DNA of 64,000 nucleotides, taken from contig JAPLSJ010000131.1 of NCBI GenBank assembly GCA_026398695.1, forward strand, positions 24,056 to 88,055, written 5' to 3'. This document shows, in pieces, positions 27,272 to 34,802 of this stretch. Origin of the DNA: Arenimonas sp. Its GTDB lineage: Bacteria; Pseudomonadota; Gammaproteobacteria; Xanthomonadales; Xanthomonadaceae. Positions within the stretch are counted from its first letter, which is position 1. Every line of letters begins with the position of its first letter. Position numbers and translations under genes: made by a program. The notes below the pieces were generated by a model. That model worked only from the letters and a program-made list of their open reading frames with translations. It did not search any database and was not told where the DNA came from.

Positions 27272-27404
27272 GCAGCCGGCGCCCGGTTCACTGGGCGCCA
27301 GGCCTGACGTCCGTGGCCCGCCGCCCGCCTTCTTTGGCGGAAGGTGCGGGCGCGGCTATGCTTGGGCGGCGGGGCCGTGGGCGCCCCATGACCGGGGGAC
27401 TTCG

Positions 27405-29420
27405 ATGAAGCAGTGTGTGCTGATGGTCTTGTTGGCGGCGGCGCCCGCCGTGGCGGGGGCGGCGCAGCCTTTCACGGCCGAGCGCAGCTGGGAAATCCAG
27501 CGCATCGGCAACCCCGAGGTGTCGCCCGACGGCCGGCACATCGTGGCGCCGGTGTCGCGCACGGTGATGGCCGACGACAAGCTGCTGTCGGACCTGTGGC
27601 TGTGGAGCAGCGACGGCAGCGTGCAGCGCCCGCTCACCGGCGACCCGGCGTCCGAAGCCACGCCGCGCTTCAGCCCCGATGGCCAGACGCTGGCCTTCGT
27701 CGCCCAGCGCGACGACGACAAGGCGCCGCAGCTGTACCTGATGCCGATCGCCGGCGGCGAAGCGCGCCGGCTCACCACCTTCGCCACCGGCGTGTCGGTG
27801 CCGCGCTGGATGGGCAACGGCAAGCTGGTGTTCGCCTCGCGGGTCTGGGCCGACCTGCCGCTGGACCAGCAGGCCAAGCGCCTGAAGGAGCGCGAAGAGT
27901 CGAAGATGAAGGCGCAGGTCTGGGACGCCGGCCCGTTCAGCGTCTTCGACACGCTGATCGACGACCGCCAGGGCCACGTGTTCTCGGTGGACGTGGCCAC
28001 CGGCGCCGTGGCGTCGCTGACGCTGGGTCGCGGGCTGCAGCTGCCGCGCTTCTCGCAGGGCTTCGATGGAACGTTCGACGTTGCCCCGGACGGCAGCGAG
28101 ATCGCGCTCACCGCCGACAGCAACCCGGCCGTGAACATCGACGACATCGACGTCTACCGGCTGCCGCTGGCCGGCGGCGAGCCGCGCAACCTGAGCCAGG
28201 GCAACGCCGGCACCGACGGCAACCCGCTCTACAGCCCCGACGGCCGCCACCTGGTGTTCCTGCAGCAGCGCATCCCGGGCTTCTACGCCGCCAAGGCGCG
28301 GCCCATGCTGCACGACACCCGCAGCGGCGGCACCCGCGAACTGCACGCCGACTGGGACCGCAGCGCCTCGGGCCTGGCCTGGTCGCGCGACAGCCGCACG
28401 CTGTACGGCGCGATTGACGACGCCGGCACCACGCGCGTCTACGAACTGCCGCTGAGCGGCAAGCCGCGCGCCATCACCGGCGAGTCGTCCTTCAGCGGCC
28501 TGTCGGTCGCATCCGGCGCGATCGCCGCCGTGCGCCAGAGCTTCACCGAGCCGCCGACCCTGGTGAGCCTGGACCCGCGCCGCGGCAGTGCGCGCAAGCT
28601 GTCCACCCTCAACGACGCGCTGATGGCCGATACGGCGATGGGCACGTTCGAATCGGTGACCTACGCCGGCGCCAAGGGCGAGGACATCCAGATGTGGGTG
28701 AACTACCCGGCGGGCTTCGACCGCAGCAAGAAGTACCCGGTGTACGTGGTCATCCACGGCGGTCCGCACAACGGCGTCGTCAACGCGATGCAGTTCCGCT
28801 GGAACGCCCAGGTGTTCGCCAGCTGGGGCTACGTGGTGATCCAGCCCAACTTCCACGGCAGCTCGGGCTTCGGTGAGAAGTTCACCGACTCCATCAATCC
28901 CGAGTGGGCGCAGATGCCCTACGAGGACGTGATCAAGTCTGCCGAGTGGGCGGCGTCGCAGCCCTGGGCCGACGCCGACCGCATGGTGGCCGGCGGCGGC
29001 AGCTACGGCGGTTACCTCACCTCGGTGATCCTGGGCCGCGAGCACCCGTTCAAGGCGCTGGTGGCGCACGCCAAGGTCTACAACCTCTACACGCAGTACG
29101 CGGCCGATTTCGCCGCCACCGTGCCGCGCTTCGGCGGCTTCTGGGAAGAGGGCAACCGCGAAATCACCGACCGCAACTCGCCGCATCTCTCGGCCGGCAA
29201 CTTCAAGACGCCCACGCTGGTGATCCACGGCCAGCGCGACCTGCGCGTGCCGGTGAACCACGGCATCGAACTGTTCCAGACCCTGCTGGTGAAGGGCGTG
29301 CCCACGCGCCTGGTGTATTTCCCGGACGAGAACCACTGGGTGCTCAAGCCGCAGAATTCCGTGTTCTGGTATTCCGAGGTCCGGCGCTGGCTGGACCAGT
29401 ACAACCCGCCGGCGAAGTAG
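27405..29420 (+). CDS. S9 family prolyl oligopeptidase-type peptidase
   Basis: 671 residues from the ATG at 27405 (GGGGGA upstream); the longer frame from 27222 is not supported. A signal peptide (to about 20, AGAAQ) indicates export. A WD40-like beta-propeller (about 30-410, with repeated SPDG segments) precedes an alpha/beta hydrolase domain. The catalytic triad is visible: Ser533 in GGGSYGGYL, Asp612 in GQRDLRVP, His644 in DENHWV. It is an acylaminoacyl- or dipeptidyl-peptidase-like enzyme, probably periplasmic. It stands alone. Confidence 0.95.
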   Translation: MKQCVLMVLLAAAPAVAGAAQPFTAERSWEIQRIGNPEVSPDGRHIVAPVSRTVMADDKLLSDLWLWSSDGSVQRPLTGDPASEATPRFSPDGQTLAFVAQRDDDKAPQLYLMPIAGGEARRLTTFATGVSVPRWMGNGKLVFASRVWADLPLDQQAKRLKEREESKMKAQVWDAGPFSVFDTLIDDRQGHVFSVDVATGAVASLTLGRGLQLPRFSQGFDGTFDVAPDGSEIALTADSNPAVNIDDIDVYRLPLAGGEPRNLSQGNAGTDGNPLYSPDGRHLVFLQQRIPGFYAAKARPMLHDTRSGGTRELHADWDRSASGLAWSRDSRTLYGAIDDAGTTRVYELPLSGKPRAITGESSFSGLSVASGAIAAVRQSFTEPPTLVSLDPRRGSARKLSTLNDALMADTAMGTFESVTYAGAKGEDIQMWVNYPAGFDRSKKYPVYVVIHGGPHNGVVNAMQFRWNAQVFASWGYVVIQPNFHGSSGFGEKFTDSINPEWAQMPYEDVIKSAEWAASQPWADADRMVAGGGSYGGYLTSVILGREHPFKALVAHAKVYNLYTQYAADFAATVPRFGGFWEEGNREITDRNSPHLSAGNFKTPTLVIHGQRDLRVPVNHGIELFQTLLVKGVPTRLVYFPDENHWVLKPQNSVFWYSEVRRWLDQYNPPAK

Positions 29421-29447
29421 CCGCGGCGGCCGATTTGATCCATGTCA

Positions 29448-29480
29448 GGCCCGTCTGCCGCTCCGGGGGCAGACTGGGCC
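29448..29480 (+). terminator. Hairpin after the S9 peptidase gene
   Basis: GGCCC-GTCTGCC (29448-29459) pairs with GGCAGAC-T-GGGCC (29468-29480), giving a 12-bp stem with a one-base bulge and an 8-nt loop. It lies 28 bp after the peptidase stop and 22 bp before the next start. No U tract follows. Confidence 0.45.
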
Positions 29481-29501
29481 GACTCAACCGGGAACAACAC
29501 C

Positions 29502-29693
29502 ATGAAAACCAACGTTGGCGGCATCGATCGTGGTCTCCGCATCGCCGTGGGCGGCGGCCTGATCGCCTGGGCCGCGGCCTTTGACGGCCCGGCCCTGGCC
29601 TACCTGGGCGTGATTCCCCTGCTGACCGGCGTGTTCGGCATGTGCGGCCTTTATTCGCTGCTGGGCATCAACACCTGCCGCATCAAGGACTGA
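29502..29693 (+). CDS. DUF2892 (YgaP-like) small membrane protein
   Basis: 63 residues with the DUF2892 signature: N-terminal VGGIDRGLRI, two transmembrane helices and FGMCGLYSLLGINTC near the C-terminus with two cysteines. Some relatives are fused to rhodanese domains; here it is free-standing. The weak GGGA upstream supports the ATG at 29502. Its 3' end overlaps the convergent RidA gene by 11 bp. Confidence 0.88.
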   Translation: MKTNVGGIDRGLRIAVGGGLIAWAAAFDGPALAYLGVIPLLTGVFGMCGLYSLLGINTCRIKD

Positions 29694-30183
29694 TCGGCCG
29701 CACGGCGGTCACTTCGATTTCCACCAGGAAGCCCGGGTTGGCGAGCCCGGCCACCTGCATGGTGGAGCGCACCGGCAGCTTGGGCTGTGACTGCGTGCCG
29801 AAGAACTCGCTGTAGCCCTTCATGAAGCCGCCGAAATCCATCCGGCCTTCCATCGCCGGGTCGCCGACCAGGAAGACCTGCATCTTCACCACGTCGCCCA
29901 TGGTCAGGCCCAGGCCCTTGAGCTGGGTTTCGATGGCCTTGAGCACGCTCACCGTCTGCGCCTGGGTGTTGCCGTAGGCGGCGACGGTGTTGGCGGGCGC
30001 AGCGGCGTCGGCCACCGGCGGCACCATGCCGCTGAGGTACACCGTGGTGGCGCCCGCGGGCACTTCCACCGCGGCGGCGATCGGGAAGGTGCTGTTGTTG
30101 GGCAGCTTGTGGCGCACGACTTCGCCTGCGCAGGCAAACGTCGGGGCCAGGACCATCAGCAGGGCGGCGGCGGACTTGATCAT
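29683..30183 (-). CDS. Exported RidA/YjgF family imine deaminase
   Basis: 166 residues with an N-terminal signal peptide (MIKSAAALLMVLAPTFACAG, about 20), unusual for the mostly cytoplasmic RidA family. The RidA fold follows, with the substrate-binding arginine in PVRSTMQV (Arg139) and the conserved VEIEV near the C-terminus. RidA enzymes hydrolyse reactive enamines/imines to ketones and ammonia. Its ATG overlaps the cytochrome c stop (ATGA). With the amine oxidase upstream in the same operon, it probably hydrolyses the imine product in the periplasm (inference). Confidence 0.93.
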   Translation of the reverse strand: MIKSAAALLMVLAPTFACAGEVVRHKLPNNSTFPIAAAVEVPAGATTVYLSGMVPPVADAAAPANTVAAYGNTQAQTVSVLKAIETQLKGLGLTMGDVVKMQVFLVGDPAMEGRMDFGGFMKGYSEFFGTQSQPKLPVRSTMQVAGLANPGFLVEIEVTAVRPISP

Positions 30184-30641
30184 TCCGGGGTTCCTTTCTG
30201 GGGGTGGAGTGCCTTCACTTCGGCGGCCGTGATCGGGTCGCGGTAATCGTTGCCGAAGTTCGTGCGGATGTGGTTGATGACGTTGGCGACCTGCACATCG
30301 GTGAGGAACACCGGCTCGAAGTACGGGCCGATGGTGCGCTCGGGCGAGAACGCGGGCATGTTGCGCCGGCCACCCAGGATCACCACCGCCATGTAGCGCG
30401 ACGAGGCCATGTTGGCATTGCCGGCGAAGGCCGGGTAGCTGCCGCCACCGACCGCGCCCTTGCCGTCGGGCATGTGGCAGCCCTGGCATACCTGGGCGTA
30501 GATTTCGGCGCCGCTCGTGGTGCCCAGGTTGCCCTCGGGCGGCGGCTCGGGCGCCGCCTCGTCGGCCAGCACCGGGGCGATGGCCAGCGCCAGCAGGCAC
30601 AGCGCGGCGGTCCAGCGGGAGCGGTGTTTGCGCGCGGTCAT
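30180..30641 (-). CDS. Periplasmic c-type cytochrome, partner of the amine oxidase
   Basis: 153 residues. Signal peptide (about 1-27, ending LADE) and one haem-attachment motif CQGCH (Cys52, Cys55, His56), with Met95 in NMPAF as the likely sixth ligand, a class I cytochrome c. Start and stop overlap both neighbours by 4 bp (ATGA), so it is translationally coupled to the amine oxidase upstream and RidA downstream. The likely role is to accept electrons from the reduced flavin and pass them to the respiratory chain. Confidence 0.95.
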   Translation of the reverse strand: MTARKHRSRWTAALCLLALAIAPVLADEAAPEPPPEGNLGTTSGAEIYAQVCQGCHMPDGKGAVGGGSYPAFAGNANMASSRYMAVVILGGRRNMPAFSPERTIGPYFEPVFLTDVQVANVINHIRTNFGNDYRDPITAAEVKALHPQKGTPE

Positions 30642-32245
30642 GCGGTGGCTCCCGACAGGGCCTTGTGGTGCAGGCGGCCGATGGCGTCGATGGCCGAGGT
30701 GACCGCGCCCTCCTGCCAGGCCGGCAGGTACGAGGCATGTTCGCCGGCCAGCACGATGCGGCCGTCGATGGCGCACAGGTTGTCGTAGTGCTGGTCGCGC
30801 GTCTCCTGGGTCCACAGCGCGAAGCAGCCCATCGCGCCGGGCGCACGGTGCCAGGCCAGCGACACGCCGTTGTCGAACTCCTGGTCGTACTGCGGGTGCA
30901 GCTGGCGGCCCTGGCGCACCGCTTCGCGCACGCGGTCGGCGGCCGACAGCGAGGTGAAGCGCGCCGCGTCCTTGCCCCACAGGTAGCCGCCCAGCAGCAC
31001 GCCCTTGCCCGGCGCGTGGTAGCCGGTGCTGGGGTAGCCGATGTTGCCGATGGGCTGGTTGGTGTAGCTGATGCCGCCGTAGATGTGCTCGTCCTGTTCC
31101 CAGAAGCGGCGCTTGAACTGCAGGCCCACCTTCACCGCGGCCGCGTAGGGCAGGGCGTTGATGGCGTCGGCCATGGGCCGGCCGACGTTCATCGGCAGCT
31201 GGCCCAGGATCGACAGCGGCAGCGTGCACACGCACCAGTCGGCGCTGGCGGTCTGGCGGCTGCCCGGCTGGGTGGTGTCTTCGAAGGTGGCGCGCACGCC
31301 GTTGCCGTCCTGGTGGATGTCCACCACCTTGGCATTGAAGCGGATCAGGCCCTTGAGCTCGTGCGCGAAGGCTTCGGCGATGCGGTCCATGCCGCCCACG
31401 GGCTGCAGCAGCGTGCTCTGCATTTCATACAGGTCGCCGATGGGCAGCGAGAACCAGAGCTTCGAGTCGAGCATCTGCTTCAGGCCCACCGGCTGCGATG
31501 GCACCGGGCGGCCGCCGAGGCCGCCGCCGGGGTCGCGCTCGAAGCCACGGCGTTCGCTCGACATCAGGTTGCGGGAATACTTGAAGTCATCGTCCAGCGC
31601 GCCCCACCAGCGCAGCGACTCGAGCAGTTTTTCCTGGTCTTCGCGCTCCAGCGGCGCGTCGAGCTTGCCGCCCTGGGTGGCCTTGGCCAGCAGCTCGGCC
31701 ACGTGGCCCTGGTAGTCGGCCTTGACCGCGCGGTGGCGCTGCGGTTTGCCGTCGAAGGCGTCGGTGTGGTGCAGCAGGGCCTGGTGGTTCACCTGCACGA
31801 AGTTTTCCAGCGGCACGCCGAACTGGCGGCAGTAGCCCAGGATGCCGTGGTGGTGGTGCGGCAGCCGCCACGGGCCGGGGTTGATGTACAGGCCGGGGTC
31901 GAACTGGCAGTGCTGGGTTTCCCCGCCCAGCTCGGTGTAATGCACGCCGCCGCGCAGCGTGAGGTTGCGGCCGCCGGCGCGCGCGGCGTATTCGAGCACC
32001 TGCACTTTGTAGCCGGCCTTGCGCAGCTCGTACGCGGCCACCATGCCGGCGATGCCCGCGCCCAGCACCAGCACCGACGCCCCGGGCGGCGCCGCGCCCA
32101 GCTGCGGCGTTCCGCTGAAGGTGGATTCCTCCGCCAGGCCCAGGCTGGCCATGGCCTGGTACATCGCCGCGCTGCCCGCGCTAAGCCCGATCATGCGCAG
32201 CAGACGCCTGCGCGTCATGCCTTCCGCCATTGCGCCGCTCTTCAT
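30638..32245 (-). CDS. Tat-exported flavin amine oxidase (probable dehydrogenase)
   Basis: 535 residues from the ATG at 32245. A twin-arginine signal (TRRRLLRMIG, about 10-20) directs export with FAD bound. GAGIAG and LEYAARAGGR form the N-terminal dinucleotide-binding region. INPGPWRLPHHHHG resembles L-amino-acid/amine oxidase substrate regions. LAGEHASYLPAWQEGA is the C-terminal FAD motif. Stop overlaps the cytochrome c start. The flavin-oxidase-plus-cytochrome arrangement recalls NicA2/CycN, where cytochrome c rather than oxygen is the acceptor. The substrate is unknown; a MAEG start 15 bp downstream is possible. Confidence 0.93.
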   Translation of the reverse strand: MKSGAMAEGMTRRRLLRMIGLSAGSAAMYQAMASLGLAEESTFSGTPQLGAAPPGASVLVLGAGIAGMVAAYELRKAGYKVQVLEYAARAGGRNLTLRGGVHYTELGGETQHCQFDPGLYINPGPWRLPHHHHGILGYCRQFGVPLENFVQVNHQALLHHTDAFDGKPQRHRAVKADYQGHVAELLAKATQGGKLDAPLEREDQEKLLESLRWWGALDDDFKYSRNLMSSERRGFERDPGGGLGGRPVPSQPVGLKQMLDSKLWFSLPIGDLYEMQSTLLQPVGGMDRIAEAFAHELKGLIRFNAKVVDIHQDGNGVRATFEDTTQPGSRQTASADWCVCTLPLSILGQLPMNVGRPMADAINALPYAAAVKVGLQFKRRFWEQDEHIYGGISYTNQPIGNIGYPSTGYHAPGKGVLLGGYLWGKDAARFTSLSAADRVREAVRQGRQLHPQYDQEFDNGVSLAWHRAPGAMGCFALWTQETRDQHYDNLCAIDGRIVLAGEHASYLPAWQEGAVTSAIDAIGRLHHKALSGATA

Positions 32246-32405: not shown

Positions 32406-34802
32406 ATGAAAACTTCGCTCGAAATCCAGGTGTTGCAGCTGTTCGAGCAGGCGCTGGCCCAGCCCGCCGCCGAGCGCATGGCCTGGCTGGCCGGGCAGGC
32501 CCTGGGCGATGACGTGCTGGCGCGCGTGGTGCGCCTGCTGGACGCCGAGCGCGCCGCCACCGCCGTGATTGAACAGACTGCCTTGGCGCCGGACGACGTG
32601 GCGCCCGAATTCCCCAAGGTGGGCGAGCGGCTTGGAAACTATGAGCTGCTCAGGCCGCTGGAAGCCGGCGGCATGGGCGTGGTGTACCTGGGCCGCCGCG
32701 CCGACGACGTCTACGAGCAGCAGGTGGCGATCAAGCTGGTGCGTCCGGTGCACCTGCTGGCGGCCGCCGATTTCCGCCGCCAGCTGATTTCGCGCTTCGA
32801 GGACGAGCGCTCGATCCTGGCGCGCATGAGCCACCCCAACGTGGCGCGCATCCTGGACGGCGGCAGCACCGCCGGCGGCATTCCCTATCTGGTGATGGAA
32901 TACGTCGACGGCGTGTCGCTGACCGACTACTGCCGCAACCAAAAGCTCGACGTGCCGGCGCGCCTGGCGCTGTTCTGCAAAGTCTGCGACGGCGTGCAGG
33001 AGGCGCATCGCCACTTGATCGTGCACCGCGACCTCAAGCCCGACAACATCCTGGTCGGTGCCAATGGTGAGCCGCGCCTGCTCGATTTCGGCATCGCCAA
33101 GATCCTCGAACAGGAGCCGCTCAACGCCGACAAGGGCACGTCGCTTTCTGCCATGACGCCCGCCTACGCCAGCCCCGAGCAGGTAAGGCAGGAAGCGCTC
33201 ACCACCAGTTCCGACGTCTATTCGCTGGGCGTGGTGCTGTACCAGCTGCTGGCTGGCGTGCGTCCCTACGAGCTGGCCGGCCTGCGGCCGGCCGAAGCCG
33301 AGCACCTTGTCTGCGAAACGCTGCCCGAGTCGATGCACAAGATGCTGGACAAAGCGGCGATCACCGACGGCGAGCGCAAGCTGCGCCGCAGCCAGCTGGC
33401 GCCGGACGTGGAGCGCATCGTCGCCAGGGCGATGCACAAGGAGTCGGCGCGGCGCTACGGTTCGGCGCAGGAGCTGGCCGACGACATACGCCGCTACCTG
33501 TCCGGCCAGCCCGTACAGGCACACCCGGATTCAGTGGGCTACCGCGCGCGCAAGTTCCTGGGCCGCCATCGCATCGGTGCGGCCGCGGCGACGCTGGCGC
33601 TGGCGGCCATCCTCACCGCCAGCGGCGTGGCGTTCTGGCAGGCGGGCCAGGCGCGCCGTGCGGCCAGTGACATGGGTGAGATCAACGGGTTCCTGATGGA
33701 CGTGCTGCGCATGTCCAACCCCTACGAAACGGCGGGCGAGCTGAGCCTCAGCGATGCCGTGGACAGCGCCCTGGTGCAGGTGGACAAACGCTTCGCCGGG
33801 CGCCCGGCATTGTCCGCGGGCGTGCGCTTCGCGCTGGGCTACAGCATGCTCAGCCGCAACCAGCTGGCCCTCGCCGAGCCGCAGCTGGCGCTGGCGCTGG
33901 CCGATAGCCAGGCGTCGATGGGCGCGCAGGCGCTGCGCACCCTGCAGATCCGCGAGGCCATCGCCCAGCTGCGCATCGCCCAGGGCCGCACGAAGGAAGC
34001 CGAGGCCGACCTGCTGTCGGTGCTGGCCGACATCGAGGCCAGCGGGCAGACAGCAGATCCGCTGTACCTGCTGGTGCTCAACAACATCGGCCAGCTCTAC
34101 CTCGACCAGGAGCGCTACCCGGAGGCCCGCAGCTACCTGGAGAAGGCGCGCGCGCAGCCGGAGCCCAAGGCCGGCACGGCATCAGCCGACACCCGGGCCA
34201 TCCTGGTGTCCAACCTGGCCTACGTGGCCCATGGGCTGGGTGAGCTGGACCAGGCCGACCGGTTGTTCGACGAGGCCGAGGCCGAGTTCCGCAAGGTGCG
34301 CCCCGGCGGCAGCGCCGAGCTGGCGTCGCTGATGAACAACCGCGCCTTCCTGCTGGACGAACAGGGCAAGGCCGACGAGGCCTACGCCCTGCGCCAGGCC
34401 TCGCTGGCGATGCGCGAAGCGGCGCTGGGCGGCGAACATCCCTCGCTGGTGCCGCCGCTGATGGACCTGGCGCAGAGCGCCCTGATGCGGGGCGACGCGG
34501 AAGTGGGCCTGGCCCTGGCCACCCGCGCCGTGGCCATTTCTCGCACGGCGTTCCCGCAGCCCCATGCCGACACCGTGTTCGCCCTCGGCATCCAGGCCGG
34601 CGCGCTGATCAACAACAAGCGCTTCCTCGACGCGGGTGAAGCCATCAGCCTCGCCGAAGCCGATCTGGCCCGGCTCGACGCGCCGCCGGAGTACATCGTG
34701 CAGGGCATCGGCTACGTGCGGCAGGGCCTGTGCAAGCGGCCGCGCACGCCGCCGGTGCCTTCCTGCGCCGGCATCGAGCCCACGGAGCCCGCCCTGCCCT
34801 GA
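32406..34802 (+). CDS. Transmembrane Ser/Thr protein kinase with TPR-like repeats
   Basis: 798 residues. A short N-terminal helical region (1-70) precedes a Hanks-type kinase domain (about 78-345): glycine loop EAGGMGVVYLG, Lys110 in VAIKL, catalytic HRDLKPDN (Asp209), DFG (227-229) and the APE-like ASPE. One transmembrane helix follows (about 391-411), then a C-terminal half (about 430-780) of helical TPR-like repeats with typical alternation of Ala, Tyr and Leu. The layout is common in xanthomonads, with the repeats on the periplasmic side as a possible sensor. Its substrate is unknown. It is divergent from the amine oxidase operon. Confidence 0.93.
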   Translation: MKTSLEIQVLQLFEQALAQPAAERMAWLAGQALGDDVLARVVRLLDAERAATAVIEQTALAPDDVAPEFPKVGERLGNYELLRPLEAGGMGVVYLGRRADDVYEQQVAIKLVRPVHLLAAADFRRQLISRFEDERSILARMSHPNVARILDGGSTAGGIPYLVMEYVDGVSLTDYCRNQKLDVPARLALFCKVCDGVQEAHRHLIVHRDLKPDNILVGANGEPRLLDFGIAKILEQEPLNADKGTSLSAMTPAYASPEQVRQEALTTSSDVYSLGVVLYQLLAGVRPYELAGLRPAEAEHLVCETLPESMHKMLDKAAITDGERKLRRSQLAPDVERIVARAMHKESARRYGSAQELADDIRRYLSGQPVQAHPDSVGYRARKFLGRHRIGAAAATLALAAILTASGVAFWQAGQARRAASDMGEINGFLMDVLRMSNPYETAGELSLSDAVDSALVQVDKRFAGRPALSAGVRFALGYSMLSRNQLALAEPQLALALADSQASMGAQALRTLQIREAIAQLRIAQGRTKEAEADLLSVLADIEASGQTADPLYLLVLNNIGQLYLDQERYPEARSYLEKARAQPEPKAGTASADTRAILVSNLAYVAHGLGELDQADRLFDEAEAEFRKVRPGGSAELASLMNNRAFLLDEQGKADEAYALRQASLAMREAALGGEHPSLVPPLMDLAQSALMRGDAEVGLALATRAVAISRTAFPQPHADTVFALGIQAGALINNKRFLDAGEAISLAEADLARLDAPPEYIVQGIGYVRQGLCKRPRTPPVPSCAGIEPTEPALP

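What the first reader, a model, noticed from the sequence alone, without database searches (positions are those of the whole stretch)
29683..32245. Coupled periplasmic amine oxidase - cytochrome c - RidA operon
Three genes overlap by ATGA at both joints, so they are made together. All three products carry export signals: Tat for the flavoenzyme, Sec-like signal peptides for the cytochrome and for RidA. The flavin amine oxidase would make an imine; the CQGCH cytochrome would take its electrons instead of oxygen; the RidA, with its conserved Arg139, would hydrolyse the imine before it does damage. A flavin amine oxidase that uses a cytochrome c is known for NicA2/CycN. A dedicated exported RidA as third partner looks like a self-contained amine-respiring module that I do not know as a described system.
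Basis: partly seen in the sequence, partly recalled or inferred. Interest (0 to 1): 0.78.

Follow-up and report, generated by a model that had tools for sequence, protein, structure and literature searches.

The report
Exported amino-acid dehydrogenase with imine-clearing helper
This is a three-gene operon of a kind already published in 2016 from a sugarcane bacterium, predicted to oxidise L-amino acids outside the cytoplasm, likely pass the electrons to its own cytochrome c, and likely clear the reactive imine with an exported helper enzyme.

Summary
In detail: three minus-strand genes (30638-32245, 30180-30641, 29683-30183), joined by two ATGA overlaps, encode a Tat-type flavin amine oxidoreductase, a one-haem cytochrome c and a Rid protein, each with an export-like N-terminus. 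It is not an undescribed system. The same order with homologous genes (flavoenzyme 51% identical) is the lao-cccA-ridA operon of Gluconacetobacter diazotrophicus (2016), where lao mutants lose auxin production from tryptophan. [quoted passage not shown] The "RidA" belongs to subfamily Rid3 by nearest solved relatives and by its Ile hallmark. In a supported clade of 43 enzymes (window included) the cytochrome is always adjacent and the Rid in 33. I read it as an L-amino acid:cytochrome c dehydrogenase with a dedicated exported Rid3 imine deaminase. Electron transfer, substrate, export and imine hydrolysis are inferred, not shown. What is fresh is modest: a likely in vivo job for Rid3, and another probable cytochrome-c-using lineage among flavin amine oxidases.

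The parts
30638..32245 (-). L-amino-acid-oxidase-type flavin amine oxidoreductase (lao), 535 aa
   Evidence: 51% identical to the G. diazotrophicus lao product
32195..32215 (-). twin-arginine motif TRRRLLR (residues 11-17) of the predicted Tat signal
   Evidence: sequence; similar motifs in relatives
30180..30641 (-). c-type cytochrome (cccA), 153 aa, Sec-like signal, one CQGCH and a conserved Met95
   Evidence: C52, C55, H56, M95 in 43 of 43 clade members
30474..30488 (-). haem-binding motif CQGCH (residues 52-56)
29683..30183 (-). Rid3-subfamily imine deaminase (named ridA in the published operon), 166 aa, predicted signal peptide
29767..29769 (-). codon of the catalytic Arg139 of the Rid protein
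   Evidence: conserved in 33 of 33 clade members that have the gene

Best explanation
The three genes are a member of the lao-cccA-ridA operon type described in Gluconacetobacter diazotrophicus, and they are predicted to form an exported L-amino acid dehydrogenase that would pass its electrons to the co-encoded cytochrome c while an exported Rid3-type imine deaminase would likely hydrolyse its imino acid product. Step by step: the folded FAD enzyme would leave by Tat, the cytochrome and the Rid by Sec (inferred from the N-termini). The enzyme would oxidise the alpha-C-N bond of L-amino acids, with Arg127 and Tyr421 holding the carboxylate (inferred from conservation). FADH2 would be reoxidised one electron at a time by the cytochrome, which would feed a haem-copper oxidase (inferred; the genome encodes such oxidases, cytochrome c maturation proteins and TatC). 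Rid3 would speed hydrolysis of the imino acid to keto acid and ammonium. The Rid is a helper that some lineages lack; the cytochrome is the constant partner.
For: Homology of all three genes, in the same order, to the G. diazotrophicus operon: 51% / 612.9 bits, 83.0 bits, 149.2 bits. In that species lao insertions cut indolic compounds by 95% and lowered cccA and ridA transcripts (PMC5053998, abstract and passages). Best solved relatives of the flavoenzyme are LAAOs. Arg127, Lys372 and Trp510 in 43 of 43 and Tyr421 in 40 of 43 clade members, the kinds of residue that PMC9331233 (passages) names for LAAOs. Cytochrome adjacent in 43 of 43 members of a clade with SH-aLRT 99. A second clade of three carries a different CxxCH protein in the same slot, between enzyme and Rid. 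Tat plus adjacent cytochrome predicts cytochrome-using dehydrogenases in other branches, with kinetics (PMC12224317). Two Rid3 proteins hydrolyse LAAO-made imines of Leu, Gln, Phe, Met and His in vitro (PMC5619798). Rid and enzyme co-occur: 19 genomes with both, 4 enzyme only, 3 Rid only, 174 neither, of 200 (Fisher 7e-20, which treats related genomes as independent). Own genome: COX1 family 3 matches, cytochrome c assembly family 3, TatC 1.
Against: No biochemical test of this enzyme's acceptor or substrate exists in what I read; the 2016 paper describes LAAO with O2-type chemistry and H2O2 and only suggests a role for the cytochrome. The lysine near the flavin that O2-using LAAOs share is kept (43 of 43), so residues alone do not exclude O2 use. 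The Rid is absent next to 10 of 43 clade enzymes. Nine of those ten genomes were searched whole: five hold no Rid3-like match at E 1e-8 (G147, G174, G515, G273, G335) and four hold one only beside a second enzyme copy (G120, G100, G544, G454), so the Rid is not essential. A Rid of this type also occurs without the enzyme in 3 of 200 genomes. The operon is patchy: 23 of 200 genomes of the order and 2 of 5 of the genus in the sample have the enzyme. Export is not measured.
Confidence: 0.74

Rival explanations
1. A periplasmic O2-using L-amino acid oxidase that makes H2O2 (for auxin formation, defence or nitrogen scavenging); the cytochrome would only feed a peroxide-removing or unrelated electron path, and Rid clears the imine.
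For: Closest solved relatives are enzymes named L-amino acid oxidases and the flavin-side lysine is conserved. The 2016 paper describes LAAO chemistry with H2O2. The extracellular Chlamydomonas LAO1, paired with a RidA, makes H2O2 (PMC10805672, passages).
Against: Cytochrome adjacent in 43 of 43 clade members, with a 4-base overlap in 21 of 22 order relatives. [quoted passage not shown]
Confidence: 0.17
2. A NicA2-like amine dehydrogenase for alkaloids, polyamines or aromatic amines.
For: Same superfamily, Tat-type N-terminus and adjacent cytochrome.
Against: Best solved match is R. opacus LAAO, and NicA2 is not among the 60 rows shown of 94. The Arg at the carboxylate-binding place is invariant in 56 of 56 enzymes aligned and the Tyr is kept in 53 of 56.
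Confidence: 0.05
3. The Rid protein acts on something other than the enzyme's imine product, and its neighbourhood reflects co-regulation only.
For: Rid absent beside 10 of 43 clade enzymes and present without the enzyme in 3 of 200 genomes. Imino acids also hydrolyse spontaneously (stated in PMC4433059).
Against: Rid accompanies the enzyme with the usual cytochrome, with a different one, and with none, including a pair that looks cytosolic. Catalytic Arg and Glu invariant in 33 of 33.
Confidence: 0.12

Closest known systems
lao-cccA-ridA operon of Gluconacetobacter diazotrophicus PAL5 (GDI2456-2454; PMC5053998)
   Same: Same gene order; all three products homologous (51% identity; 83 and 149 bits); Tat signal on the flavoenzyme; published as an operon.
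   Different: There it is tied to auxin production from tryptophan; I know of no such phenotype for the window's organism. The cytochrome's and Rid's roles were left as hypotheses.
NicA2/CycN, Pnao and other cytochrome-c-using flavin amine oxidoreductases (PMC12224317)
   Same: Tat-exported flavoenzyme next to a Sec-exported cytochrome c.
   Different: That survey started from NicA2 BLAST hits; its held text has no occurrence of LAAO, imine or RidA. The window's enzyme is of the LAAO branch and carries a Rid gene.
Rhodococcus opacus L-amino acid oxidase (2jae)
   Same: Closest solved relative (292 bits, residues 50-529), shared carboxylate-binding Arg and Tyr.
   Different: Used as an O2 oxidase; no cytochrome partner known to me (recalled, not searched).
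Rid3 proteins PFL_1385 and PSPTO_3006 (9bkc, 9bka; PMC5619798)
   Same: Nearest solved Rid relatives (131.8 and 127.4 bits); listed as Rid3 with imine deaminase activity.
   Different: The passages read name DauA as a possible partner, not a periplasmic LAAO; in the solved PSPTO_3006 chain only 10 residues precede the matched core, so it looks unexported.
Chlamydomonas LAO1 with LAO2/RIDA (PMC10805672)
   Same: Extracytoplasmic L-amino acid oxidase paired with a Rid protein.
   Different: Eukaryote, makes H2O2; no cytochrome gene is mentioned for the cluster in the passages read.

Membership tests
lao-cccA-ridA operon (G. diazotrophicus type) | order flavoenzyme - cytochrome c - Rid on one strand, tightly spaced | tested here: met
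lao-cccA-ridA operon (G. diazotrophicus type) | each product homologous to its counterpart | tested here: met
   612.9, 83.0 and 149.2 bits; enzymes in one clade, SH-aLRT 99
lao-cccA-ridA operon (G. diazotrophicus type) | needed for indole-3-pyruvate / auxin formation from tryptophan | not testable with these tools
   published for G. diazotrophicus
L-amino acid oxidase branch of flavin amine oxidoreductases | closest relatives are LAAOs | tested here: met
   2jae 292 bits, then vertebrate-type LAAOs at 105-138 bits
L-amino acid oxidase branch of flavin amine oxidoreductases | Arg and Tyr at the substrate carboxylate, Lys at the flavin, Trp at the amino group | tested here: met
   R127, Y421, K372, W510; features from PMC9331233; which R. 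opacus residues these are is recalled
L-amino acid oxidase branch of flavin amine oxidoreductases | oxidises L-amino acids with O2 to give H2O2 | not testable with these tools
   needs purified enzyme
cytochrome-c-using flavin amine dehydrogenases (NicA2/CycN kind) | Tat signal on enzyme and adjacent cytochrome c with Sec signal | tested here: met
   signals by motif and hydrophobicity only, no predictor run
cytochrome-c-using flavin amine dehydrogenases (NicA2/CycN kind) | falls in the published clades 1-3 around NicA2 | tested here: inconclusive
   no tree with NicA2 was built; NicA2 absent from the 60 rows shown of 94 PDB matches
cytochrome-c-using flavin amine dehydrogenases (NicA2/CycN kind) | reoxidised far faster by its cytochrome than by O2 | not testable with these tools
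   kinetics
RidA subfamily (sensu stricto) | reaches the cut-off of NCBIfam TIGR00004 (Rid family detoxifying hydrolase) | tested here: not met
   39.5 bits against 106.25
RidA subfamily (sensu stricto) | active-site Tyr | tested here: not met
   Ile35 at that place, by the criterion in PMC4433059; the alignment to RidA's Tyr is by eye
Rid3 subfamily | Ile in place of the active-site Tyr, with Arg and Glu kept | tested here: met
   I35 in 32 of 33, R139 and E155 in 33 of 33; criterion from PMC4433059
Rid3 subfamily | closest characterised relatives are Rid3 | tested here: met
   9bkc and 9bka, 131.8 and 127.4 bits, next match 33 bits; subfamily
Rid3 subfamily | imine deaminase activity | not testable with these tools
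   shown for two relatives in vitro

The most novel reading that the evidence does not exclude
Rid3 is an exported imine deaminase whose in vivo job is to serve periplasmic L-amino acid:cytochrome c dehydrogenases, a separate and widespread dehydrogenase lineage in the L-amino acid oxidase branch; loss of export in one lineage took the cytochrome with it and left a cytosolic oxidase-Rid3 pair.
Probability: 0.5. Interest if true: 0.52.

Novelty: new member of a known kind. Interest (0 to 1): 0.36.

Why it matters
If right, bacteria can respire on external L-amino acids without making H2O2, which would revise the 'L-amino acid oxidase' label for part of a large protein family (7554 relatives at E 1e-20 among the 7999 candidates scored; what share has the cytochrome was not counted there) and for the auxin operon of a crop endophyte. 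It also gives Rid3, whose in vivo substrates were stated to be unknown in 2015 (PMC4433059, passage), a partner that can be tested at the bench.

Tried and rejected
Polyamine or aromatic amine substrate: dropped because of the LAAO affinity and the carboxylate-binding residues. 'Undescribed system': dropped. The third protein being a RidA: dropped. A missing Rid lying further away: the four order loci without it were re-read over 12 kb each and had none. No structure prediction was run, since sequence already placed all three families. A paper search from 2021 on for the mechanism listed no paper with at least five of its six terms.

Searches were translated with coordinates off by a few bases and are out of frame; their proteins P0002 and P0003 were not used. 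In one search the automatic search for the twin-arginine or the Rid start picked a wrong place in some rows (for example L019, L021-L023, L038, L060); one search is used only to look at single rows, never for a count. In some searches only part of the first look's candidates was scored in each genome (7 and 3 at most), so a missing match there is weaker evidence than a found one.
Full report
OBSERVATION. The three genes lie on the minus strand at 30638-32245 (flavoenzyme, 535 aa), 30180-30641 (cytochrome, 153 aa) and 29683-30183 (Rid, 166 aa); the two joints are ATGA overlaps. Pfam confirms Amino_oxidase, Cytochrom_C and Ribonuc_L-PSP, each over its cut-off. The flavoenzyme begins MKSGAMAEGMTRRRLLRMIG..., a twin-arginine pattern; the cytochrome and the Rid begin with short N-terminal stretches followed by hydrophobic runs. 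No signal-peptide predictor was on hand, so export is a reading of sequence, helped by a crude hydrophobicity script.

IT IS A PUBLISHED OPERON. A paper search listed Rodrigues et al. 2016 (PMC5053998; I read the abstract and passages). In Gluconacetobacter diazotrophicus, lao (GDI2456), cccA (GDI2455) and ridA (GDI2454) form an operon; Tn5 insertions in lao cut indolic compounds by 95%, and in the mutant tested by RT-qPCR transcripts of all three genes fell; the paper notes a Tat signal on the enzyme, kinship to R. opacus LAAO, and, from OperonDB, the same organisation in Caulobacter crescentus and Xanthomonas species. Using the paper's lao primer I fetched that locus and compared it with the window: the flavoenzyme is 51% identical over residues 9-530 (612.9 bits), the cytochrome matches at 83.0 bits and the Rid at 149.2 bits, in the same order.

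THE FLAVOENZYME IS AN LAAO TYPE. Among solved structures the best match is Rhodococcus opacus L-amino acid oxidase, 292 bits, followed by vertebrate-type LAAOs at 105-138 bits; NicA2 is not in the 60 rows shown of 94. In the alignments, Arg127 and Tyr421 stand at the carboxylate-binding Arg and Tyr, Lys372 at the flavin-side Lys and Trp510 at the amino-group Trp; that LAAOs keep such residues is stated in PMC9331233 (passages), while which R. opacus residues they are is recalled. Across relatives Arg127, Lys372 and Trp510 are invariant in 43 of 43 of the window's clade and in 13 of 13 outside it; Tyr421 is kept in 40 of 43 and 13 of 13. Another pocket position, Phe475, varies, so I do not predict which L-amino acids are preferred; tryptophan is the one with genetic support, in G. 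diazotrophicus.

THE THIRD PROTEIN IS RID3. It falls well short of the NCBIfam model TIGR00004 (39.5 bits, cut-off 106.25). At E 1e-5 only four solved sequences match: PFL1385 (131.8 bits), PSPTO3006 (127.4 bits), then two at 33 and 31 bits. Hodge-Hanson and Downs 2017 (PMC5619798; abstract, passages and two sections) list PFL_1385 and PSPTO_3006 as Rid3 and show that they hydrolyse imines made by a snake-venom L-amino acid oxidase from Leu, Gln, Phe, Met and His; for Phe the leftover trapping rate was 3 with either Rid3 against 16 with RidA and 21 with none. Niehaus et al. 2015 (PMC4433059; passages) give the Rid3 hallmark, Ile for the active-site Tyr with Arg and Glu kept, report that RidA or sometimes Rid3 genes cluster with flavin amine oxidases, and say that nothing is known of in vivo substrates of Rid1-3. 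The hallmark holds here: Ile35 in 32 of 33, Arg139 and Glu155 in 33 of 33. PFL1385 also aligns through part of the window protein's N-terminal hydrophobic stretch.

DISTRIBUTION IN THE ORDER. In 200 genomes, 23 (own included) have the enzyme at E 1e-30, in 25 matches; in the genus it is in 2 of the 5 sampled, own included, so it is patchy. Of the 24 non-own loci, 22 have the cytochrome directly downstream and 18 the Rid; the two without cytochrome are the distant matches at 41% and 35% identity. The enzyme-cytochrome overlap is 4 bases in 21 of those 22 (starts chosen by a simple rule). The second joint is less fixed: a 4-base overlap in 4 of 18, otherwise gaps of 1 to 48 bases. Four loci lack the Rid even over 12 kb. 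Searching the Rid in the same 200 genomes at E 1e-15 finds it in 22: 19 have both, 4 enzyme only, 3 Rid only, 174 neither. Fisher's test gives 7e-20 but counts related genomes as independent. In the three Rid-only genomes no enzyme lies in the 5-15 kb read around the gene. In these searches only part of the first-look candidates was scored per genome (7 at most for the enzyme), so absences are softer than presences.

DISTRIBUTION IN THE PHYLUM. In 398 genomes, 27 (own included) have a match at E 1e-60, in 31 matches (3 candidates scored per genome at most). I examined all 30 non-own matches: 29 as delivered loci and the last as L098. The cytochrome model matched beside 19 of 30 and the Rid model beside 21 of 30. 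Three more (L051, L052, L055) carry a different CxxCH protein between enzyme and Rid. Two of the Rid-less ones (L056, L057) have a Rid about 3 kb away on the same strand; I counted them as without. A quick tree of 56 enzymes (own, 24, G. diazotrophicus, 30) puts the window and G. diazotrophicus in a clade of 43 with SH-aLRT 99: the cytochrome is adjacent in 43 of 43 and the Rid in 33 of 43. The three with the different cytochrome form their own group. Ten others lack a cytochrome in what was read: a group of eight, and the distant pair L024 and L025. In that group of eight, L059 has charged residues in the would-be signal (its near-twin L058 was printed only up to that point), and in both the Rid starts 12 residues before its conserved core, so that enzyme and Rid look cytosolic; the other members keep a twin-arginine-like N-terminus without an adjacent cytochrome, so export and cytochrome do not go together everywhere. 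The tree is of the quick kind, with long branches (L024, L025, L055, L098), and cannot tell gain from loss.

HOW IT LIKELY WORKS. Akram et al. 2025 (PMC12224317; abstract, passages and one section) showed with kinetics that Tat signal plus adjacent cytochrome c predicts flavin amine oxidoreductases that use cytochrome c and react poorly with O2. That survey began from NicA2 hits, and its held text has no occurrence of LAAO, imine or RidA. Applying the rule to this branch, I infer an L-amino acid:cytochrome c dehydrogenase. The cytochrome has one haem motif and a Met conserved in 43 of 43 (Met95, a likely axial ligand). The own genome (89% complete) has three COX1-family matches, three cytochrome c assembly matches and one TatC. 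Shown: gene order, homology, conservation, co-occurrence, and, in the paper, the G. diazotrophicus phenotype. Inferred: export, substrate, electron acceptor, imine hydrolysis by this Rid. The Rid is a helper, since 10 of 43 loci do without it: of the nine such genomes searched whole, five hold no Rid3-like match at E 1e-8 and four only one beside a second enzyme copy; the tenth (G351) was not in that search.

AGAINST. The 2016 authors describe LAAO with H2O2 while suggesting a role for the cytochrome; the flavin-side Lys of O2-using LAAOs is kept; I read no kinetic data for this branch. The listings of my searches showed no earlier paper linking exported Rid3 with such operons, but the library holds only open-licence PMC papers and I opened six of them.

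VERDICT. A real, conserved but patchy operon, already described in another bacterium; a new member of a known kind. The useful additions are the Rid3 assignment, the constancy of the cytochrome against the variability of the Rid, and the different cytochrome in the same slot in a separate group.

Noticed in passing
L071, L072, L073 (G533, G406, G541): Between the flavoenzyme and the Rid sits a different ORF of 206-220 codons with CxxCH, not found (or only at 15.7 bits) by the cytochrome model of the main clade: the cytochrome slot is filled by another kind of protein.
   Followed up: partly
L058, L059 (G480, G537): Enzyme-Rid3 pairs without cytochrome in which both proteins seem to lack export signals; their Rid is 86% identical to the PSPTO3006 fragment.
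   Followed up: partly
L036, L039, L043, L045: The Rid N-terminus has a Cys after a hydrophobic run (lipoprotein-like), suggesting a membrane-anchored Rid in these lineages.
   Followed up: no
L064 and L068 (G273, G335): A further CxxCH-bearing ORF of about 500 codons lies upstream of the enzyme on the same strand, and no Rid was found.
   Followed up: no
L065 (G351): Two enzyme-cytochrome sets face each other; in one the order is Rid-cytochrome-enzyme.
   Followed up: no
window 27402-29420 (+): S9-family peptidase (PF00326, 181 bits) with a signal-like N-terminus just beyond the operon's 3' side; if exported it could release amino acids for the dehydrogenase.
   Followed up: no
window 29442-29693 (+): Small YgaP-like membrane protein (PF11127) whose 3' end overlaps the Rid gene's end by 11 bases, convergent.
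   Followed up: no
window 32406-34802 (+): Serine/threonine kinase with TPR repeats, divergent from the operon across about 160 bases.
   Followed up: no
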